Assembly: GCA_003170475.1 (NCBI GenBank) | Contig: PMZI01000082.1 | Span: forward strand, 18,697 to 82,696 | Length of the DNA stretch: 64,000 bases | Source of the DNA: Ignavibacteriota bacterium | Lineage (GTDB): Bacteria > Bacteroidota > Ignavibacteria > UBA10030 | Direction: 5' to 3' | Shown here: piece after piece, positions 51,426 to 61,231 of the stretch | How positions within the stretch are numbered: the stretch's first letter is position 1 | Layout: each line of letters opens with the position of its first letter | Notes under the pieces: model-generated | Told to the model about the DNA's origin: nothing | Database searches by the model: none | Seen by the model: the letters and a program-made list of their open reading frames with translations, nothing else | Position numbers and translations under genes: made by a program

Positions 51426-52535
51426 ATGGCTGATTTTGAAATAGCTGTTATCGGAGCAGGTGTTGTCGGACTCGCAATCGCCGCCCGGCTCTCGGAGAAG
51501 CACAAGAACCTCGTGATTCTTGAAAAGAACGAGAAATACGGAATGGAAACCTCGAGCCGGAATAGCGAGGTAATTCATGCCGGGATCTATTATAAGCCGG
51601 GTTCTTTGAAGGCGACGCTGTGCGTGGAAGGGCGGGAGGAGCTCTACAGGATTTGTCGAAAGCACAACGTCGGACACAAGCAGATCACAAAAATCGTTAC
51701 CGCTACGAACGAGAGCGAATTAATGGTCCTTGAGGCGACGTACGCCAATGGAAGGGAGAACGGGGTCCCGCTTGAGATATTGACGAAACAGCAGACGCTC
51801 GCTCTGGAGCCGCACATCAATACCGTCGGTTCGATTTTCTCACCGACGACCGGCATCGTCAGTGCCCACGAATTGATGGATTGCTACTATCATCTCGCAG
51901 TGAGCAATGGAGTGACGGTTCAGCATCACTGTGAGGTGGTGGGAATCGAAAGGCGCGGCGGAGAGTATGCGATTACGGTGGACGAAGGCGGGCAGCGTTC
52001 GGTCGTTACGAGTGAAAAAATCATCAACTCCGCTGGTCTCTATTCGGACAAAGTCGCTCAGATGGCCGGCATCGATATCGACAAAGCCGGATATCGGATG
52101 GTGTTCGCGAAGGGTTCCTATTTTTCTGTGGCTTCTACGAAAGCTAAACTGGTTTCACGCCTCGTCTATCCCGTGCCGCACAAAGAGACGCTTGGCGTTC
52201 ACGTCGTGCTTGACCTCGGCGGTCGGCTTAGGATGGGACCCGACACCGAGTACATGGATGAGCTCAACTGCGACTACTCAGTCGCAGAGTCGAAACGAAA
52301 CGTGTTTGCCGAGTCCGTCCGCCGGATTCTTCCCGCCATTGCCGATGAAGACCTGGCACCAGACATGAGCGGCATACGACCCAAGCTCCAACGCAGGGGA
52401 GAAGATGAAAAAGACTGGATCATTGTGCATGAAGCGCAGAGGGGATTGGAGGGGTTCTACAACTTGATCGGAATGGAGTCACCGGCACTGACAGCTTCTG
52501 CGGCAATAGCGAAGCACGTGGAAGGCATTCTTTGA
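51426..52535 (+). CDS. lhgO: L-2-hydroxyglutarate oxidase-like FAD-dependent oxidoreductase
   Basis: IAVIGAGVVGLAIAARL, SSRNSEVIHAGIYYKPGSLKATLCVEGR, GIVSAHELMDCY, NLIGMESPALTASAAIA. Confidence 0.85.
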   Translation: MADFEIAVIGAGVVGLAIAARLSEKHKNLVILEKNEKYGMETSSRNSEVIHAGIYYKPGSLKATLCVEGREELYRICRKHNVGHKQITKIVTATNESELMVLEATYANGRENGVPLEILTKQQTLALEPHINTVGSIFSPTTGIVSAHELMDCYYHLAVSNGVTVQHHCEVVGIERRGGEYAITVDEGGQRSVVTSEKIINSAGLYSDKVAQMAGIDIDKAGYRMVFAKGSYFSVASTKAKLVSRLVYPVPHKETLGVHVVLDLGGRLRMGPDTEYMDELNCDYSVAESKRNVFAESVRRILPAIADEDLAPDMSGIRPKLQRRGEDEKDWIIVHEAQRGLEGFYNLIGMESPALTASAAIAKHVEGIL

Positions 52536-52811: not shown

Positions 52812-53348
52812 ATGGCCAAAAAAAGTGTCACGGCTCGCGCAGAGCGAATCGTCAGACTTCTGCCCGGGATCATGAGGTCAATTGCCCGCTGGCATAACAA
52901 TCGGATGATCATGGGCATCACCGAAAGCGGACGGATGGATCGGCCCGTCGGTGATGTGAAGATTCAGGGGGGCAAGGGGTTGAAGCTGACGTTGAATCAG
53001 TACCAGGCACTCGTCACAATTCGGGAATTGGGCGAGTGCTCGGTGAATGATCTCGCTGACAAACTCGGCATTGCCCAGAGCACGACGTCTCAGCTTGTCG
53101 ATCGATTGGTCAAGAGCGGCTGCGTCAGCAGGGAAACATTTGCCGATGATCGCAGAAGGATGGTTGTGGCGCTCAGCAAATCGGGCGAACAAATGATAGA
53201 ACGCAGAAAACAATCGCTCCTCAAAGCATATGCTCACATCCTCCTGATGCTGGATGAGAATGATCAGAATATGCTCGAAGAGGCATTCGAAAAGTTCTAT
53301 CGGATTGCCGCGAAATTGAGTCTGTGGCCGAAAAAGCGCCGACATTGA
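52812..53348 (+). CDS. MarR family transcriptional regulator
   Basis: LTLNQYQALVTIRELGECSVNDLADKLGIAQSTTSQLVDRLVKSGCVSRETFADDRRRMVVALSKSG wHTH. Confidence 0.92.
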   Translation: MAKKSVTARAERIVRLLPGIMRSIARWHNNRMIMGITESGRMDRPVGDVKIQGGKGLKLTLNQYQALVTIRELGECSVNDLADKLGIAQSTTSQLVDRLVKSGCVSRETFADDRRRMVVALSKSGEQMIERRKQSLLKAYAHILLMLDENDQNMLEEAFEKFYRIAAKLSLWPKKRRH

Positions 53349-53384
53349 CAAAAAGACTTTCCTTTCCTCTTTCTGGAGATTGTT

Positions 53385-54554
53385 TTGACGATCCTCCTCA
53401 TCACAGTATTTGTCTTTGTCCTTTACCTCGTCTATGAGAGAGTTGTTCTCGATCGGCTGAGGAAATCCATTCCGCTCGTCATCACCGTCACCGGTACGCG
53501 CGGGAAATCGACAGTCGTCCGCCTGCTCGCCTCGATCCTTCGAGAAAACGGTGGCGTCGTGCTGGCGAAATCCACCGGCTCACAGGCGCAATATGTTCTG
53601 CCTGATGGTACTGTGGAAGATGTTGCCCGCCGCGGATTGGTGTCTATTCTCGAACAGAAGAAAGCCCTCAAGAAAGCCGTGATTCTCAAGGCAGACTGCC
53701 TTGTTGCTGAGATCATGAGCATCCGGCCGGAGAACCATCTCGTCGAATCACAGCGTATCCTCAAGCCAAATATGGTTATTCTGACGAACGTTCGGAAAGA
53801 TCACACGGATGCAATGGGAGAGAGGGAAGATGACATCGCCCGGGTTCTCAATCTCGATTTTCCCAAGGGCGCGGCGGTCTATGTGTCCCAGGATTCCCAA
53901 CAGTATATCGATGAAGAAATCGTTCAGACGCGTTCGTTGCAGCTCAGAGTGGTTCCGCGTACTTCGATGCTTTCTCCGGCCGATCCGAAGTCTCCTCTTC
54001 CGAGAAACGAGTTTTCAGAAAACCTGGATCTCGTCGCCGCTGTAGCGCGAGGACTGAACATCGAAGACGCGGTCATTGTGCGGGGAATACAAAATGCAAT
54101 CCACGATATAGGTCGATTTACGATCTGGAGCCTGCAACTGAATGGAAAAAAGATCTTCGCGGTCAATGCCTTCGCAGCCAATGATCCGGACTCCACACTC
54201 AAGGTGCTTGCAAAAACTCATGAGTTGCTTGCAGGCAAACCGCGGGCGTTTACAGGACTGTTGAATCTGCGCGCCGACCGCCCCGAGAGGACGTTACAGT
54301 GGATCGAAGCGCTGAACTCGGGGGTGGCGAAGGAATTTTCTCAGCTGTATGTTCTCGGCGGGCACGCAAACGTCGTGAAGCGGAAAATTGACAAGACACT
54401 AACCGTCGCGTCGAAGTCTCCGGACACTGTAACCCAGACCATCGCTGAACATATGGAAGAGGACGAAGTTCTTTTCGGGTTCGGCAATATCCGGGGCGCC
54501 GGAGAACAACTTGTCGAATACTGGCGGCGGGAAGGAAAAGAATATGGAATATGA
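53385..54554 (+). CDS. pgsB: Poly-gamma-glutamate synthase PgsB-like Mur-ligase (TTG start)
   Basis: N-terminal TM; VTGTRGKSTVVRLLASILRENGG P-loop; MVILTNVRKDHTDAMG; FGFGNIRGAGEQLVEYW. Confidence 0.92.
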   Translation: MTILLITVFVFVLYLVYERVVLDRLRKSIPLVITVTGTRGKSTVVRLLASILRENGGVVLAKSTGSQAQYVLPDGTVEDVARRGLVSILEQKKALKKAVILKADCLVAEIMSIRPENHLVESQRILKPNMVILTNVRKDHTDAMGEREDDIARVLNLDFPKGAAVYVSQDSQQYIDEEIVQTRSLQLRVVPRTSMLSPADPKSPLPRNEFSENLDLVAAVARGLNIEDAVIVRGIQNAIHDIGRFTIWSLQLNGKKIFAVNAFAANDPDSTLKVLAKTHELLAGKPRAFTGLLNLRADRPERTLQWIEALNSGVAKEFSQLYVLGGHANVVKRKIDKTLTVASKSPDTVTQTIAEHMEEDEVLFGFGNIRGAGEQLVEYWRREGKEYGI

Positions 54555-54981
54555 ACTCATTTTCGTCGCATTGCTCGCTTCGCTGCTCTTCATCGGAGTG
54601 ACAGGGTTTTATCCGGGAGGAATCATTGTTCCAAGCTACCTCGTCCTCTTCATCCATCAACCCGGACGTCTTCTCGGGACTCTCATCGCAGCACTGCTGA
54701 CGTACCTCTGTTACAAACTCCTCTCCCGCTATCTTATCATCTTCGGAAGACGGATATTTGTGTTCATGGTGCTGGTCGGCGCGTTATGGACGTTCTGCTG
54801 GATGCAGGTGGTTCCGATCCTCTCGCCGGGTTCACTCGAATTCAGAGTCATCGGATGGGTCATCCCGGGTCTCATCGCGAACAACTTTGAGAAACAAGGC
54901 ATCGTTTCCACGACGGCATCGCTCGTCACAGTGACCGTCACTGTTTATCTTCTCGGCCGGCTTTTAGGATTGGTTGCGTAG
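54544..54981 (+). CDS. pgsC: Poly-gamma-glutamate biosynthesis protein PgsC-like
   Basis: Multi-TM protein with TGFYPGGIIVPSYLVLF and GWVIPGLIANNFEKQG; overlaps the pgsB end by 11 nt. Confidence 0.9.
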   Translation: MEYELIFVALLASLLFIGVTGFYPGGIIVPSYLVLFIHQPGRLLGTLIAALLTYLCYKLLSRYLIIFGRRIFVFMVLVGALWTFCWMQVVPILSPGSLEFRVIGWVIPGLIANNFEKQGIVSTTASLVTVTVTVYLLGRLLGLVA

Positions 54982-54983
54982 GC

Positions 54984-56105
54984 ATGGTAAGACTCTTCGA
55001 TCAGTTCAGGATGATATTTCCCGATCCGAAAGTGCAGGGACTGGTTCTCTGTGCTCTCGTGAGCACTGCGATGGTTGGTGTTGTGCTCTCATTGGATCCG
55101 GCTCCTCGCGGTGGGAACATTGAGCGGAAGGTCGCTGCTTCCGAGTCGATGGAACTGGCCATCAAAGCATTGCGCGAGAACTACCTCTCCCGCGGATTTC
55201 AATTCGACGATACCGTAGATCCGAATCACACTGCACTCGTGGGGGTTGAGTATTCAGACATGGTGACGACACTTGGGAGCGCTGATGCAAAGAGGTCAAC
55301 GACCAATCCAAACGTTGCAGGGCTTGTCGTGCAGCTCCTCATCGAAGCCGGCGTGAAGCAAGGCGATACCATAGCAGTCGGATGTTCCGGATCGTTTCCG
55401 GCGCTTGCGGTTGCGACGCTTGCTGCAACTAAAACTCTGGGTGTGCATCCGGTGATAGTCCTTTCTCTCGGATCTTCTTCTTTTGGTGCAGACAGGGTTG
55501 ACTGGACGCTTCTGGATATCCTGGGATTGTTAAAGAGCAAACATCTGGTGGATGTGTCGTTTGCGGGAGTTTCGTTGGGCGGAGCCGCTGATGTTGGAAA
55601 TGACTTTGAGCCGGAAACGAGAAAAATGCTCGCCGAGAAGATGAACCTTTCCGGAATCCCGATTATCAACGAACCGGATCTTGTGCGAAACGTTGCCAGG
55701 AGAATGGGAATCTACTTTGGCGCAACGGGGGCAAGAGGAATTGCAGCCTTTGTCAATATTGGAGGAAGTCAGGCCGACCTTGGAATAGATCCAATCATCT
55801 TGAAGCTCGAACCGGGTGTCAACCGACAAATCACATTGCCGGAGAAAGAGGAGAGGTACGGTGTTGTTTTTGCGATGGCCAAGCGCCATATTCCAGTGGT
55901 ACACCTTCTGCATATCAAAGGGCTCATGTTGAAATACGGGCTCCCGTGGGATCCGACCCCCTTGCCGAGTGTCTCGGCAGAAGACGTCTCACAACCCCAC
56001 TCGGCACTGAATGCCTCTCTGGTTGCAGCCATGAGTCTCTATTTCTTTCTCATCCTCATGATTTTCATCTTGTACAGAAGAAAGTTGTTGCGAACATCAT
56101 CCTGA
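54984..56105 (+). CDS. pgsW: Poly-gamma-glutamate system protein (PgsW-like)
   Basis: N- and C-terminal TMs; IAVGCSGSFPALAVATLAATKTLGVHPVIVLSLGSSSFGADRVDWTLLDI; 2 nt after pgsC. Confidence 0.8.
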   Translation: MVRLFDQFRMIFPDPKVQGLVLCALVSTAMVGVVLSLDPAPRGGNIERKVAASESMELAIKALRENYLSRGFQFDDTVDPNHTALVGVEYSDMVTTLGSADAKRSTTNPNVAGLVVQLLIEAGVKQGDTIAVGCSGSFPALAVATLAATKTLGVHPVIVLSLGSSSFGADRVDWTLLDILGLLKSKHLVDVSFAGVSLGGAADVGNDFEPETRKMLAEKMNLSGIPIINEPDLVRNVARRMGIYFGATGARGIAAFVNIGGSQADLGIDPIILKLEPGVNRQITLPEKEERYGVVFAMAKRHIPVVHLLHIKGLMLKYGLPWDPTPLPSVSAEDVSQPHSALNASLVAAMSLYFFLILMIFILYRRKLLRTSS

Positions 56106-56116
56106 AGGAGTCGATC

Positions 56117-56719
56117 ATGAAATATGTGTCGTTCATTCTCTTGCTTGTAGTCGCTGCGGGATTGGTCTGGTCTCCGGCCGCGGCGCAAAAGCAGCAAGTA
56201 AAACTCGAACAGCCCGTCCTTCTGACATCCTGCGGCCAAAGCCCCGGGCCGCTCAAGATCAAAGTGTTCTTCGGAAGACTCGGGATCGACTATGTCTACA
56301 ATGTGCAAGCTGCGGCCGGCGACATCATTGCAAAGAAAAAGGAAGGCAAGCCGTTCAAGTCTCTGATCATTGTGGTTGGAGCAAGTCTGAAGGGAATGGG
56401 AGCGGCAAAGGTCTCGATCGAAGAAGAAATTGATCGGACGAAAAAGCTGATCGCGGAAGCCCGGAAGCAGGGGATGAAGGTGGTTGGTTCGCACGTTGAA
56501 GGCATGGAGCGTCGTGCTCAGGGAGCGGCTCCCGGCGATAACTCCGACGAACAGTCGATTGATGCCGTTTGTCCGCAGTCAGACATTATGGTCGTTCGCA
56601 AAGACGGTGACGAAGACAAGCGGTTCACGACGATCTCGACGGGAAAGAAAATTCCGTTGGTGCTGTTTGAAAAGAACATGGAACTATCAGATGTTCTGAA
56701 AAATCTCTATCAGAAGTAA
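56117..56719 (+). CDS. DUF6305-like secreted protein
   Basis: Signal peptide MKYVSFILLLVVAAGLVWSPAAAQ; VLLTSCGQSPGPLKIKVFFGRLGIDY...VGASLKGMGAAKVSIEEEIDRTKKLIAEARKQG. Confidence 0.65.
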   Translation: MKYVSFILLLVVAAGLVWSPAAAQKQQVKLEQPVLLTSCGQSPGPLKIKVFFGRLGIDYVYNVQAAAGDIIAKKKEGKPFKSLIIVVGASLKGMGAAKVSIEEEIDRTKKLIAEARKQGMKVVGSHVEGMERRAQGAAPGDNSDEQSIDAVCPQSDIMVVRKDGDEDKRFTTISTGKKIPLVLFEKNMELSDVLKNLYQK

Positions 56720-56722
56720 ACT

Positions 56723-58015
56723 ATGGATCTCACTACCTATGCCTCTCTCGTCCTGGTCGTGATGGTCGCGGCGTATGCCGTGGCCAAGTTCTTCAAGCTC
56801 TCGACTGAGATCTCAATGTTCATCGGCGCCCTTGCAGGGTGTGTTGCCGGCGGGTTTGGCATTTCTGCCCGTCACATCGCCGAAGGTGCGATGACCTACC
56901 TCGACATCAACCTCATTTTCATCACGGCAACACTCTTTATGAACATCCTCAAGGAATCGGGAGGGGTTGCCTTCGTGGTGAGAGGGTTGTTCAAACGGTT
57001 TCATCATCGCCGGGCAATTCTTCTGGTCTTGTTGACCGTCATCCTTCTCGTTCCCGGCGCTCTCACCGGAGCCGGAAGTGTGACAGTTCTTATCTGTGGG
57101 GGCATGGTTGCGACAGTCCTTGTCAGTATGGGTGTTCCCAAAGTAAAAACAGCGGCGATTGTCTTCATAATTGCAGGCTTAAGTGCCGCGGCGCCGCCGG
57201 TCAGCCTGTGGGCAATGATGACGGCTGCAGGGGTGAACATGCCGTATGTCGGGTTCTTCTGGCCGCTAATGATCCCCTGCCTCGTGGCAGGCATTGCGAC
57301 CATGTTCATTCTCGGCTGGAAAGGGAAGCCTGCGGAGACCGAGGAGGTCCTCGCCAGCCTTCCCGCTGCGCCGGAGGGAATGAACTGGTTCAAGATCATC
57401 CTTCCGTTTGTTGTATTCCTCGGCTTCATTTTCTTGGGAAGGACTTGGCCTCATTCAACGGTCGTTACTGGACTCCCGTTCATGTTCCTTTGTTCGGCGC
57501 TGGTCTCGTATATTCTCTCGCCGCTTAAGCTCAATTTCCTCAGGATTTCCCGGGACACCGTCAATCAGCTTCTGCCGTTGCTCGGAACATTGACGTGCGT
57601 GGGAATTCTCGTTCAGATCATGACGCTCACCGGCGTTCGCGGTTTGCTGGCGGTGACCACGGTGACACTGCCCGTGACAATAGTGTTCGCATCGCTGTTC
57701 ATTGTTCTTCCCCTCTCGGAAGCTGTGTTGATGTGGGGAGCGGCTCCTGTCATCGGCGTCCCGCTGGTGCTTCTCTTTAACACCCTTGGCCTCAATCCCA
57801 TCGTTGCGCTTGCGGGCATGAGTATTATCTGGCCGCTGGGCGACGCTCTGCCGCCGACAGCAATCATTGGCCGGTTGACGGTCGATGTCACAGGATACAA
57901 AGATTCGTATGCTCAGTTCCTGAAAGCATGCATCATTCCGGCGATCATCATGATCATGATCGGGATGCTGATGGTCATTTACAGCAAGCAGCTTGGGTTT
58001 CTGACAGGACTCTAA
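56723..58015 (+). CDS. Large TRAP/DctM-like permease, substrate unknown
   Basis: About 12 hydrophobic segments; GALTGAGSVTVLICGGMVATVLVSMGVPKVKTAAIVFIIAGLSAAAPPVSLWAMM. Confidence 0.75.
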   Translation: MDLTTYASLVLVVMVAAYAVAKFFKLSTEISMFIGALAGCVAGGFGISARHIAEGAMTYLDINLIFITATLFMNILKESGGVAFVVRGLFKRFHHRRAILLVLLTVILLVPGALTGAGSVTVLICGGMVATVLVSMGVPKVKTAAIVFIIAGLSAAAPPVSLWAMMTAAGVNMPYVGFFWPLMIPCLVAGIATMFILGWKGKPAETEEVLASLPAAPEGMNWFKIILPFVVFLGFIFLGRTWPHSTVVTGLPFMFLCSALVSYILSPLKLNFLRISRDTVNQLLPLLGTLTCVGILVQIMTLTGVRGLLAVTTVTLPVTIVFASLFIVLPLSEAVLMWGAAPVIGVPLVLLFNTLGLNPIVALAGMSIIWPLGDALPPTAIIGRLTVDVTGYKDSYAQFLKACIIPAIIMIMIGMLMVIYSKQLGFLTGL

Positions 58016-58050
58016 TGAGTTGTTCGGGCGAAGCGTATCACAGATCGCGC

Positions 58051-58175
58051 TACGAAATCCGAAATGCTAAATTCGAAATCTCAAAACTTGAAAAGCAAGA
58101 CAGGGGCTTCCGTTTAGGATTTGTTCTTTAGAGTTTCGTACTGCTCTGGCATTTCGATATTCGAATTTCGTATTT
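58051..58175. repeat. Inverted pair of heptamer-periodic arrays
   Basis: 58051-58085 TACGAAA TCCGAAA TGCTAAA TTCGAAA TCTCAAA; 58155-58175 CGATATT CGAATTT CGTATTT (reverse-complement unit). Confidence 0.8.
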
Positions 58176-58196
58176 ACTCAAGTCAGAGGAAATCTC

Positions 58197-58352
58197 ATGG
58201 ATATCATCATCACCTTCATCTACTACTGTCTGGTCGCCTTTGTCAGCGCGGTTCTGATCTACAATTTCTTCAAGACAAAGGAATGGCAGAAGGAAGTGCT
58301 CACGATCATCGTGGTGCTTCCGTTCCTCCTCCGTTTGTTCATGTTGAAGTAG
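58197..58352 (+). CDS. 51-aa small membrane protein
   Basis: MDIIITFIYYCLVAFVSAVLIYNFFKTKEWQKEVLTIIVVLPFLLRLFMLK*; two hydrophobic segments around a charged loop; 9 nt before the next gene; below the ORF-track size cut-off. Confidence 0.72.
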   Translation: MDIIITFIYYCLVAFVSAVLIYNFFKTKEWQKEVLTIIVVLPFLLRLFMLK

Positions 58353-58361
58353 GAGACGGCC

Positions 58362-59522
58362 ATGACCCCTATGATTCGTAAACTTGTGTTTGGCTTCGCG
58401 GGATTAGCGCTGCTGGTGTTCTCCGGCATCAGCTTCTATCAGAGCAGGCGTCTGAAGGAGCCCGTCGTTGTCAGTGACGGAGTGACGCAGGTCGTCAGGT
58501 TAAGCAAGTACTTCTCCGGTGTCGAGGGGACAGCGAACGACTGCAACATGTACATCCTGGAAGGGAAGGAACCCGGAGCGACGTTCTGTATTCTCGGCGG
58601 GACGCATCCTGAAGAGCCCGCGGGACGACTTGCCGCATGGATCTTTGCTGAGAACGCGGTTCTCCAAAAGGGAAGACTGATCGTTGTTCTCAGCGCAAAC
58701 CGCAGTGCAACCACGGTAACCAGAGTCGGCGGAGCCTATCCACCCGAATTCTCCATCCCGACATCCTGGGGTGAACAGGGATTCCGTATGGGAGATCGGT
58801 GGTCGAATCCGCTCGATCAGTGGCCGGATCCCGAAGTGTATATCCACTATCCGAGCGGTCAATATCTCGCATATGTCGACGTGCGTAATCTGAATCGCTG
58901 CTGGCCCGGGCGGCCGAACGGCACTCTCACGGAAAGAACAACGTACGCCTTCATGGAAATGATCAGGAAGGAAAAGGTGGATATTGTCATCGATCTTCAC
59001 GAGGCTGAGCTTCAATATCCGGTGATCAGCACCATCGTCTCGCACGAAAAGGCACAGGACCTGGCCGCAATCGTTTCGATGACGCTGACGGATATGGAAG
59101 GATTCAAGATGGGAATGGAGTTTTCTCCAAAGAACCTGCACGGCCTCTCGCATCGCGAGATCGGGGATTTTTCTGATGCAGCCGGACTCTTATTCGAGGC
59201 GCCGGAACCGTTTCTTGATGCCACGCGGGGCAAAACGAACACAGAACAATTGCTCACAGGTAAAGACGATTTTGTGGTGAGGGCGGGACAGCATGGACTG
59301 CTGTTCGAGAAGATTGACGCGAATGGATGGCCTATCGACAAGCGTGTCGGTCGACATACATCGGCGGTTCTGCAGACGATGGTCAGCTGGACAGAGATGC
59401 ATCCCGACAAACCGATGGTGTGCGACAGCATCCCCAGGTACGCTGATGTCGTCGCCCGCGGACTAGGTCAATATTTGCGCAATCCGGCCCTGGCCAAACC
59501 CGGTCGAATTTGGTACGAATAG
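58362..59522 (+). CDS. Succinylglutamate desuccinylase/aspartoacylase (M14-like) zinc hydrolase, membrane-anchored
   Basis: N-terminal TM; LGGTHPEEPAGRLAAW (HxxE), DVRNLNRCWPG, VIDLHEAELQYP. Confidence 0.82.
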   Translation: MTPMIRKLVFGFAGLALLVFSGISFYQSRRLKEPVVVSDGVTQVVRLSKYFSGVEGTANDCNMYILEGKEPGATFCILGGTHPEEPAGRLAAWIFAENAVLQKGRLIVVLSANRSATTVTRVGGAYPPEFSIPTSWGEQGFRMGDRWSNPLDQWPDPEVYIHYPSGQYLAYVDVRNLNRCWPGRPNGTLTERTTYAFMEMIRKEKVDIVIDLHEAELQYPVISTIVSHEKAQDLAAIVSMTLTDMEGFKMGMEFSPKNLHGLSHREIGDFSDAAGLLFEAPEPFLDATRGKTNTEQLLTGKDDFVVRAGQHGLLFEKIDANGWPIDKRVGRHTSAVLQTMVSWTEMHPDKPMVCDSIPRYADVVARGLGQYLRNPALAKPGRIWYE

Positions 59523-59569
59523 AAGAATATTCACACATACGTCACGTTCACACCGAAAGGACTGAACAC

Positions 59570-61231
59570 ATGGAACAATTTCTTCGCTTCAACTTCCGAA
59601 AGTACATGGCGCTTCTTTTTTCCGTGCTGCTTCTGGTGGTCTACGCACAAGCTCTCGGGCAGCAGAAGAAACAGATCGAGACTGACGAAGGCTGCACAAG
59701 CATCATGGTTGGCAGGTTGGCGAGCGTTGATGGCTCGGTGATGGTCGGGCACACCTGCGACGGCAATTATCGCACATGGGTCAATGTCGTTCCTCACAAG
59801 AAGAACGGCAAAGGCGCCGTCAAGAAGATCTACTGGGGAAATCTCCACACGGAATTTGTGACCGACATGCGCGGGAAGATCTACAAAGGAGATGTGCCGG
59901 ATGCGGAAGAGACGTATTCCTATGTCAACGTCGCTTATCCTTGTCTCAATGAGAAGCAATTGGCGTTTGGCGAGACCACGATCAATGGACGCGATGAGTT
60001 GCGCAATGATGAAGGGTGGTTCCTGATCGAGGAGCTGCAGTCGATCGCCCTGGAACGCTGCTCCACCGCACGCGAAGCGATCAAGCTCATGGGAAGTCTT
60101 GCCATGAAATATGGTTATGGCGACTATGGCGAGTGCCTGACGGTTGCTGATAAGAAAGAAGTTTGGCAATTCGAGATCTTCGGTGCCGGACCGGCGGAAA
60201 AAGGGGCAGTGTGGGCTGCGGCAAGGATACCGGACGATCATATCGGCGTCTCTGCGAACATTCCGCGGATCAGCCAGCTGAACGTCAAAGACACCAACAA
60301 CTATCTCGCTTCGGAGAATGTGCAGACGGTCGCGAAAGACATGGGCTGGTGGGATCCCGCGAAGGGTGAGCCGTTCAAATTCTGGAAGGCATATAGCGGC
60401 AAGAAACCTTTCTCGACCCGCGAATTCTTCATCTTCAACTCGTTTGCTCCGTCGCTGAAGCTTTCGATGGATGCGGATGAGTTGCCGTTCAGTGTGAAGC
60501 CAGAGAAGAAGGTTGCCGTTCGCGACGTGCTCAAGATGTACCGCGAAACATACGAGGGAACCGATCTTGATATGATGAAGAATTTAATGGTACCCAAGTA
60601 TCCGAGATCACGGGAAGACGTCGTGAAGGACAGCATCGCCGGCAAACAGCCTGAGATGGTGAAGAGTCCCATTGCGAACCCTTGGATGAGCCGCGAGCTG
60701 ATGACGATGTTGAATACACTGAAGCCCGGAACGATCACAGGACAACGGACGATTGCAATCGCACGCTGCTCGTACTCGCAGGTGATCCAGGTCCGCGGAT
60801 GGCTGCCGGATGAAGTCGGCGCTGTGGCGTGGTTTGCATTTGACAATCCGGCTCAAAGTCCCCGGTTCCCGATTTTCTCGGGCGCTCTCGAGCTCCCGAA
60901 GAGCTTCGAAGTGTGCGGTCAGCAACGGTACCGTGAGGATGCGGCAACGTGGTGGTTCCGCCGGACAAATCGCCTGGCGACACTCATGTACGGACGAACA
61001 CGCGCCATGATGGACAAGGCACAAACGGAGTACGAGGACAAAGCATTCAGCGATCTGCCGGGAATCGAACTGCGGGTCCAGGAAATGCTGAAGAAGGATG
61101 GCTCGGAAGCGGGCCATATGAAAGCGCGGGAGTATGTCACCGGATACACAAACGACATGGCGCGCTCGGCGATGTCAAAATGGTGGGAGATGGGGAATCA
61201 ATTCTGGGGAATGTTCTCGGGAGGCTTCTAA
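59570..61231 (+). CDS. C69 family dipeptidase-like protein (secreted)
   Basis: EGCTSIMVGRLASVDGSVMVGHTCDGNYRTWVNVVPHK Ntn-Cys motif; C-terminal EYVTGYTNDMARSAMSKWWEMG. Confidence 0.88.
   Translation: MEQFLRFNFRKYMALLFSVLLLVVYAQALGQQKKQIETDEGCTSIMVGRLASVDGSVMVGHTCDGNYRTWVNVVPHKKNGKGAVKKIYWGNLHTEFVTDMRGKIYKGDVPDAEETYSYVNVAYPCLNEKQLAFGETTINGRDELRNDEGWFLIEELQSIALERCSTAREAIKLMGSLAMKYGYGDYGECLTVADKKEVWQFEIFGAGPAEKGAVWAAARIPDDHIGVSANIPRISQLNVKDTNNYLASENVQTVAKDMGWWDPAKGEPFKFWKAYSGKKPFSTREFFIFNSFAPSLKLSMDADELPFSVKPEKKVAVRDVLKMYRETYEGTDLDMMKNLMVPKYPRSREDVVKDSIAGKQPEMVKSPIANPWMSRELMTMLNTLKPGTITGQRTIAIARCSYSQVIQVRGWLPDEVGAVAWFAFDNPAQSPRFPIFSGALELPKSFEVCGQQRYREDAATWWFRRTNRLATLMYGRTRAMMDKAQTEYEDKAFSDLPGIELRVQEMLKKDGSEAGHMKAREYVTGYTNDMARSAMSKWWEMGNQFWGMFSGGF

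What the first reader, a model, noticed from the sequence alone, without database searches (positions are those of the whole stretch)
52812..61231. PgsA-less poly-gamma-glutamate-type operon with its own permease and two hydrolases
Seen: one plus-strand run of MarR regulator, PgsB-type Mur ligase (GTRGKST P-loop), PgsC, PgsW-like protein, DUF6305-like secreted protein, large permease, 51-aa membrane protein, aspartoacylase/M14-like hydrolase and C69 dipeptidase, with tight spacing (11-nt overlap B/C, 2 nt C/W). Known: Bacillus PGA export and anchoring uses PgsB, PgsC, PgsA/CapA (plus PgsE and CapD). Here no CapA-like metallophosphoesterase, PgsE or CapD/GGT is present. Inference: PgsB/C activity may serve a different polymer or a short gamma-peptide, with PgsW replacing PgsA and the permease and hydrolases handling export, turnover or uptake. 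PgsBC+W neighbourhoods appear to be described at family level, but I know of no defined product.
Basis: partly seen in the sequence, partly recalled or inferred. Interest (0 to 1): 0.82.

Follow-up and report, generated by a model that had tools for sequence, protein, structure and literature searches.

The report
PgsBCW synthesis–uptake operon without PgsA
This is a real, undescribed bacterial operon, recurring in at least five phyla, that joins enzymes resembling those that make the slime polymer poly-gamma-glutamate to secreted enzymes and a transporter that probably break such a polymer down and take the pieces back up; the product itself is unproven.

Summary
Nine closely packed plus-strand genes encode MarR, PgsB, PgsC, PgsW (TIGR04332), DUF6305, a 12-TM permease, a 51-aa two-TM protein, an exported AspA/AstE-like hydrolase and an exported C69 hydrolase. 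None is PgsA/CapA.

The downstream genes are not passengers. Permease, 51-aa protein, AspA and DUF6305 accompany pgsBCW in 27 loci from at least five phyla, nearly gene for gene between Ignavibacteria and Clostridia. In an independent search with the permease alone, all 4 positives among 392 Clostridia genomes also carry PgsW, one only as a contig-end fragment.

Two corrections. (i) GGT is not foreign to the system: related operons carry GGT in the slot held here by C69 (10 GGT, 11 C69, none both). (ii) CapA is absent from several PgsBCW genomes and present in a PgsB-less one, so its single distant copy here is uninformative.

Best reading: a PgsBCW synthase with a dedicated hydrolysis-and-reuptake half. 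The permease is DctM/TRAP-like; DUF6305, also found beside other transporters and peptidases, is probably its extracytoplasmic partner. A separate "type A" pgsBCW cluster instead carries a periplasmic protein and a beta-barrel.

Not shown: product, transport direction, substrates. New variant of a known kind.

The parts
52812..53348 (+). MarR-family regulator; probable operon regulator
   Evidence: PF01047 55 bits; also next to pgsB in the nearest relative L028 only
53385..54554 (+). PgsB-type Mur-ligase-like amide ligase, one N-terminal TM, GTRGKST P-loop
   Evidence: TIGR04012 266 bits over cut-off 222.7; type B PgsBs score 242-266 against 401-460 for type A
54544..54981 (+). PgsC membrane subunit
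   Evidence: PF14102 112 bits, TIGR04011 102 bits
54984..56105 (+). PgsW: N- and C-terminal TM helices around an alpha/beta domain, probably extracytoplasmic
   Evidence: TIGR04332 292 bits; TM scan; AlphaFold2 model pLDDT 82; no PDB fold match at E<=0.001
56117..56719 (+). DUF6305: exported single-domain alpha/beta protein, candidate extracytoplasmic partner of the permease
   Evidence: PF19823 151 bits; signal peptide here, lipobox plus linker in clostridial members of the operon; model pLDDT 89.6
56723..58015 (+). DctM/TRAP-like 12-TM permease
   Evidence: 14 of 25 family members match PF06808 DctM, best 3e-11; 11 of 25 match TIGR02123 TRAP_fused; near full-length profile match to TRAP DctMQ 9pym, E=0.0013. 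The window member alone matches only PF03553, below cut-off
58197..58352 (+). 51-aa two-TM protein, C-terminal P-x-x-L-R...K signature; candidate small subunit of the permease
   Evidence: 19-sequence alignment with invariant P42, R46, K51; follows the permease gene in the loci where both are found
58362..59522 (+). Membrane-anchored, extracytoplasmic AspA/AstE/DoeB-like zinc hydrolase
   Evidence: PF24827 34 bits; 2qj8 E=5e-10, DoeB 6twm E=2e-8; H82, E85 and H213 invariant
59570..61231 (+). Exported C69 family Ntn hydrolase
   Evidence: PF03577 192 bits; clostridial homologues have signal peptides ending at the nucleophile Cys

Best explanation
The operon is a two-part cycle for a gamma-linked glutamyl polymer or oligomer. 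Synthesis half: PgsB (ATP-dependent amide ligase) and PgsC (membrane) polymerise glutamate at the inner face of the membrane, with PgsW as the membrane-anchored partner in place of PgsA. Turnover half: outside the membrane the anchored AspA-like zinc hydrolase and the exported Ntn hydrolase (C69 here, GGT or C45 in relatives) trim the polymer, and the DctM/TRAP-like permease, with its 51-aa subunit and DUF6305 as extracytoplasmic partner, takes the released glutamate or gamma-glutamyl fragments back up. Shown: gene content, order, recurrence, slot exchange, predicted export of the hydrolases. Inferred: polymer identity, PgsW role, permease direction and partners, hydrolase substrates.
For: PgsB, PgsC and PgsW pass curated cut-offs. 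Of 28 loci holding the turnover genes, including the window, permease is in 28, DUF6305 27, AspA 27, 51-aa 26, PgsB/C/W 27, in Ignavibacteriota/Bacteroidota, Bacillota, Aminicenantota, Thermodesulfobacteriota and a Pseudomonadota bin. Searched by permease alone, 4 of 392 Clostridia genomes match and all 4 also have PgsW, one as a contig-end fragment. DUF6305 and PgsB co-occur in 6 of 7 DUF6305 genomes among 299 of the phylum, hypergeometric p=3e-9. GGT, a gamma-glutamyl enzyme, passes TIGR00066 in relatives and replaces C69, never both in one locus. The DUF6305+permease+AspA tree splits 100/100 into a C69-type and a GGT-type clade. Outside this operon DUF6305 sits with a peptide-binding SBP, a two-component system, ABC or AbgT transporters and M20 peptidases. 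In this operon clostridial DUF6305 are lipoproteins and Gram-negative ones have signal peptides, as solute-binding proteins do. CapA is not needed: three PgsBCW genomes about 99% complete lack it.
Against: No product, transport or enzyme assay exists. DUF6305 does not fold like a two-lobed solute-binding protein; best PDB matches are generic alpha/beta folds with TM about 0.4. The window permease itself does not pass DctM. The two halves have only moderately correlated divergence (Spearman about 0.35-0.5 between PgsB/W/C and the turnover genes, 0.83-0.91 within the turnover half) and one genome has the turnover half with no PgsB, so obligatory coupling is not shown. The C69 members fall below the NCBIfam dipeptidase cut-off (183.8 of 250), so their substrate is open.
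Confidence: 0.5

Rival explanations
1. PgsBCW makes a different gamma-linked product (another amino acid, or a short conjugate), and the hydrolases and permease serve that compound.
For: Type B PgsBs are far from the TIGR04012 core (242-266 bits against 401-460 for type A) and form lineages outside the type A clade; C69, GGT and C45 differ in typical substrates.
Against: They still exceed the PgsB equivalog cut-off and keep the P-loop; GGT in the same role points to gamma-glutamyl bonds.
Confidence: 0.25
2. It is a capsule operon: AspA and the Ntn hydrolase anchor or release the polymer as CapD does, and the permease exports ions or polymer.
For: CapD is a GGT-family enzyme (established knowledge), and GGT occurs in the operon in relatives.
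Against: The permease resembles uptake carriers of the DctM kind; DUF6305 recurs with importers and peptidases; the turnover half stands without PgsB in G140.
Confidence: 0.15
3. Ordinary PgsBCA system with CapA acting in trans from elsewhere in the genome.
For: One PGA_cap protein is encoded on contig C10.
Against: It lies among M48, CN_hydrolase, YfiO and thioesterase genes; genomes G082, G069 and G109 have PgsBCW and no PGA_cap, G140 has PGA_cap and no PgsB, and PGA_cap rings in E. coli and other controls.
Confidence: 0.05

Closest known systems
Bacillus PgsBCA(E)/CapBCA(E)(D) poly-gamma-glutamate synthase
   Same: PgsB and PgsC families; a GGT-family enzyme (as CapD is) in related operons
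   Different: No CapA metallophosphoesterase and no detected PgsE homologue; PgsW instead; adds permease, 51-aa protein, DUF6305, AspA and C69
Cloacimonadota and Fusobacterium nucleatum cap operons (PMC13082233, PMC3815933)
   Same: PgsB/PgsC outside Bacilli; F. nucleatum is reported to make the polymer
   Different: Described as CapB, CapC, CapA (Cloacimonadota) or as homologous to the B. subtilis operon (F. nucleatum); no turnover half described
TRAP transporters (DctP-DctQ-DctM)
   Same: Permease of the DctM superfamily; a small membrane protein and an exported protein encoded alongside
   Different: The exported protein is DUF6305, not DctP; the small protein is 47-62 aa with two TMs, not DctQ; no Pfam DctP or DctQ hit
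PghP/PghL phage gamma-PGA hydrolases (PMC4497714)
   Same: Zinc hydrolases related to carboxypeptidase A; the AspA/AstE fold is of the same general kind (the latter from general knowledge)
   Different: Different family (PF05908); the AspA-like protein here is membrane anchored and operon encoded

Membership tests
PgsBCA/CapBCA poly-gamma-glutamate synthase | PgsB ligase (TIGR04012) | tested here: met
   266 bits, cut-off 222.7
PgsBCA/CapBCA poly-gamma-glutamate synthase | PgsC (TIGR04011/PF14102) | tested here: met
   102 and 112 bits, over cut-offs
PgsBCA/CapBCA poly-gamma-glutamate synthase | PgsA/CapA (PF09587) in the operon | tested here: not met
   No hit in the operon; single distant copy in the genome
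PgsBCA/CapBCA poly-gamma-glutamate synthase | PgsE/CapE small protein | tested here: inconclusive
   The 51-aa protein hits no NCBIfam family and only a chance-level Pfam match; whether it is an analogue is unknown; it is tied to the permease gene
PgsBCA/CapBCA poly-gamma-glutamate synthase | Product is poly-gamma-glutamate | not testable with these tools
   Needs biochemistry
TIGR04332 poly-gamma-glutamate system protein (PgsW) | Curated model cut-off | tested here: met
   292 bits, cut-off 100
TRAP transporter | DctM large permease (PF06808) | tested here: inconclusive
   14 of 25 family members match at E<=0.01 (best 3e-11), but not the window member; near full-length profile match to 9pym
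TRAP transporter | DctP solute-binding protein and DctQ small subunit | tested here: not met
   No Pfam DctP or DctQ match in the operon; DUF6305 and the 51-aa protein stand in their place
AspA/AstE zinc hydrolase | PF24827 over cut-off with H, E, H ligands | tested here: met
   34.2 bits over 25; H82, E85, H213 invariant in five homologues; ligand role inferred from the family
C69 dipeptidase | PF03577 and NCBIfam equivalog NF033678 | tested here: inconclusive
   PF03577 192 bits met; NF033678 183.8 below its cut-off 250

The most novel reading that the evidence does not exclude
The permease, the 51-aa protein and DUF6305 form a new class of tripartite, TRAP-like transporter with a miniature membrane subunit and an unrelated one-domain extracytoplasmic protein, dedicated to recovering what a PgsA-free PgsBCW synthase has exported: a polymer synthesis, hydrolysis and reuptake cycle in one operon.
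Probability: 0.35. Interest if true: 0.75.

Novelty: new variant of a known kind. Interest (0 to 1): 0.58.

Why it matters
Poly-gamma-glutamate synthesis is known mainly from PgsBCA systems. A widespread PgsA-free form with its own hydrolases and a candidate new transporter gives a direct test of what PgsBC can do without PgsA, offers a function for two uncharacterised families (PgsW, DUF6305) and a 51-aa protein, and suggests that some bacteria reclaim the polymer as a reserve instead of only shedding it.

Tried and rejected
Search for CapA elsewhere as hidden partner: one copy found, unrelated neighbours, and PGA_cap presence does not track PgsB. PgsW fold: no solved relative by sequence or Foldseek. 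PgsW related to DUF6305: hhalign probability 2.6%, rejected. DUF6305 as classical two-lobed binding protein: not supported by the model. DUF6305 as marker of the operon: rejected, since 17 of 20 further clostridial DUF6305 loci lie in a different operon. 'AAT/C45' hits in Bacteroidota in an early scan were mostly type IX sorting tails; the profile was trimmed and all but one vanished. Promoter and terminator scans gave no clear excess over shuffled sequence. Literature: no paper in the library on DUF6305, no relevant one using TIGR04332 or PgsW, and none found on this operon. A reference Bacillus PgsB was not fetched, so tree placement is relative to type A only.

Full report
1. Observation. 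The nine genes are present and in order on the plus strand. Re-measured starts and gaps: MarR 52812-53348, 36 nt, PgsB 53385-54554, 11-nt overlap, PgsC 54544-54981, 2 nt, PgsW 54984-56105, 11 nt, DUF6305 56117-56719, 3 nt, permease 56723-58015, 181 nt, 51-aa protein 58197-58352, 9 nt, AspA-like 58362-59522, 47 nt, C69 59570-61231. PgsB, PgsC and PgsW pass curated cut-offs. No CapA, GGT or PgsE family hit occurs in the operon.

2. Genome check. The 4.08-Mb assembly (96% complete) holds a single PgsB, one PGA_cap protein on another contig, surrounded by M48 peptidase, CN_hydrolase, YfiO and thioesterase genes, and three GGT genes elsewhere. PGA_cap is a poor marker. PgsBCW genomes G082, G069 and G109 (about 99% complete) have none, and G140 has two but no PgsB. 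Among 398 genomes of the phylum 12 have PgsB; PgsW lies beside it in the 11 whose neighbourhood was examined (G384 was not).

3. Two kinds of pgsBCW cluster. Ninety-two loci were analysed: 80 from named genomes, ten neighbourhoods from whole genomes in the window's phylum found by PgsW or DUF6305, the turnover-only locus L116 being one of these, and the remainder including the window. By gene content 50 are type A (PgsB-C-W followed by an uncharacterised exported protein of about 300 aa, with a beta-barrel protein recognised in 30), 28 are type B (DUF6305, permease, AspA), and 14 are neither or are short contigs. In the PgsB and PgsW trees type A forms essentially one supported clade, with myxobacterial 'neither' loci inside it. 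Type B fills several other lineages. Type B PgsBs of the window's phylum score 242-266 bits on TIGR04012 against 401-460 for type A.

4. The window is type B. Type B loci carry permease 28/28, DUF6305 27/28, AspA 27/28, the 51-aa protein 26/28 and PgsB/C/W 27/28; several absences are contig ends. The order C69-DUF6305-permease-51aa-AspA-PgsB-PgsC-PgsW is shared by Oscillospiraceae, Lachnospiraceae, Tissierellia and Clostridiales loci. Sedimentibacter saalensis has PgsBCW-C69-DUF6305-permease-51aa-AspA, close to the window's order. Because most of these loci were found through PgsW, the linkage was tested independently. Searching 392 Clostridia genomes with the permease alignment alone gave 4 genomes; all 4 have PgsW, one only as a below-cut-off fragment on another, contig-end piece. 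Searching 299 genomes of the window's phylum with DUF6305 gave 7 above cut-off, 6 with PgsBCW adjacent, p=3e-9 for co-occurrence with PgsB.

5. The Ntn-hydrolase position. In relatives the operon holds GGT (10 loci) or C69 (11 loci including the window), never both, mostly directly beside DUF6305. In L071 the gene after DUF6305 is a C45-type Ntn hydrolase (70.5 bits, below the 85-bit cut-off). In L062 and L072 a protein of about 700 aa lies between permease and DUF6305 instead (M28-like in L062). GGT members pass TIGR00066. A concatenated DUF6305+permease+AspA tree separates the C69-type loci (Ignavibacteria, Aminicenantes, Clostridia) from the GGT-type loci with 100/100 support; the tool warns of long branches there. 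Divergence is strongly correlated within DUF6305/permease/AspA (0.83-0.91) and weaker against PgsB/W (0.35-0.50). So the turnover genes appear to move as a unit and can be combined with different pgsBCW lineages.

6. The permease unit. The permease family is DctM-like: 14 of 25 members match PF06808 and 11 of 25 the fused TRAP model, with a near full-length profile match to the isethionate TRAP protein 9pym (E=0.0013). The window member alone shows only a sub-threshold PF03553 match. The 51-aa protein has two TM segments and an invariant P/R/K signature at its C-terminus, and follows the permease gene where both are found. DUF6305 is exported, with a lipobox and linker in clostridial type B loci and a signal peptide in Gram-negatives, folds confidently (pLDDT 89.6) as one alpha/beta domain, and has no clear solved relative. 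In 17 further clostridial loci (16 genomes) it lies in another setting: where sequence is long enough, beside a protein of about 545 aa and ones of about 470 and 212 aa. In the loci tested these are a peptide-binding SBP_bac_5, a histidine kinase and a response regulator, next to ABC or AbgT transporters and M20 peptidases. This recurrent company suggests a role in sensing or uptake of peptide- or amide-like substrates. It also means DUF6305 is not specific to pgsBCW, whereas the permease nearly is. The exception is G140, which has the turnover genes and no PgsB.

7. Mechanism. Established family knowledge makes PgsB/PgsC an ATP-dependent gamma-amide polymerase and GGT a gamma-glutamyl enzyme. 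With exported hydrolases and an uptake-type permease in the same operon, the simplest reading is synthesis and export of a gamma-glutamyl polymer followed by extracytoplasmic hydrolysis and reuptake. PgsW has TM anchors at both ends and a probable extracytoplasmic domain, broadly as PgsA is anchored (from general knowledge), but no structural relation was found. Product identity, transport direction and hydrolase specificity are inference.

8. Novelty. PgsB outside Bacilli is known (PMC4497714), Cloacimonadota operons are described as CapB-CapC-CapA (PMC13082233), and F. nucleatum is listed as a producer (PMC3815933). No text found in the library treats DUF6305, TIGR04332/PgsW or this operon, though most subscription papers are not held. 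I rate it a new variant of a known kind, with a novel transporter arrangement as the most interesting untested part.

Noticed in passing
L018:6853-11656 and about 50 type A loci, e.g. L020, L032, L035, L074: A second conserved cluster, PgsB-PgsC-PgsW followed by an exported ~300-aa protein without Pfam match and a ~380-aa beta-barrel-like protein, mainly Bacteroidota: a candidate outer-membrane export route for a gamma-glutamyl polymer.
   Followed up: partly
L154-L170, e.g. L156:2-11134, L159:3691-10875: Clostridial operon SBP_bac_5 - DUF6305 - histidine kinase - response regulator followed by an ABC transporter (with a DUF3798 protein) or AbgT, and M20 peptidase: a sensing/uptake system using DUF6305 that I found no description of.
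   Followed up: partly
L116:2438-12339 (G140): Permease, 51-aa protein, AspA, DUF6305 and GGT in a genome in which no PgsB was found; possibly a scavenger of others' polymer.
   Followed up: yes
window 51426-52535: L-2-hydroxyglutarate oxidase-like FAD enzyme upstream of marR; the same gene also lies upstream of pgsB in L028 and L030.
   Followed up: partly
L063, L077, L152, L054: These operons carry one or more extra AspA-like genes directly upstream of pgsB.
   Followed up: no
L105:7041-8282: Myxobacterial pgsBCW preceded by a type I phosphodiesterase-like gene, a possible further accessory.
   Followed up: no
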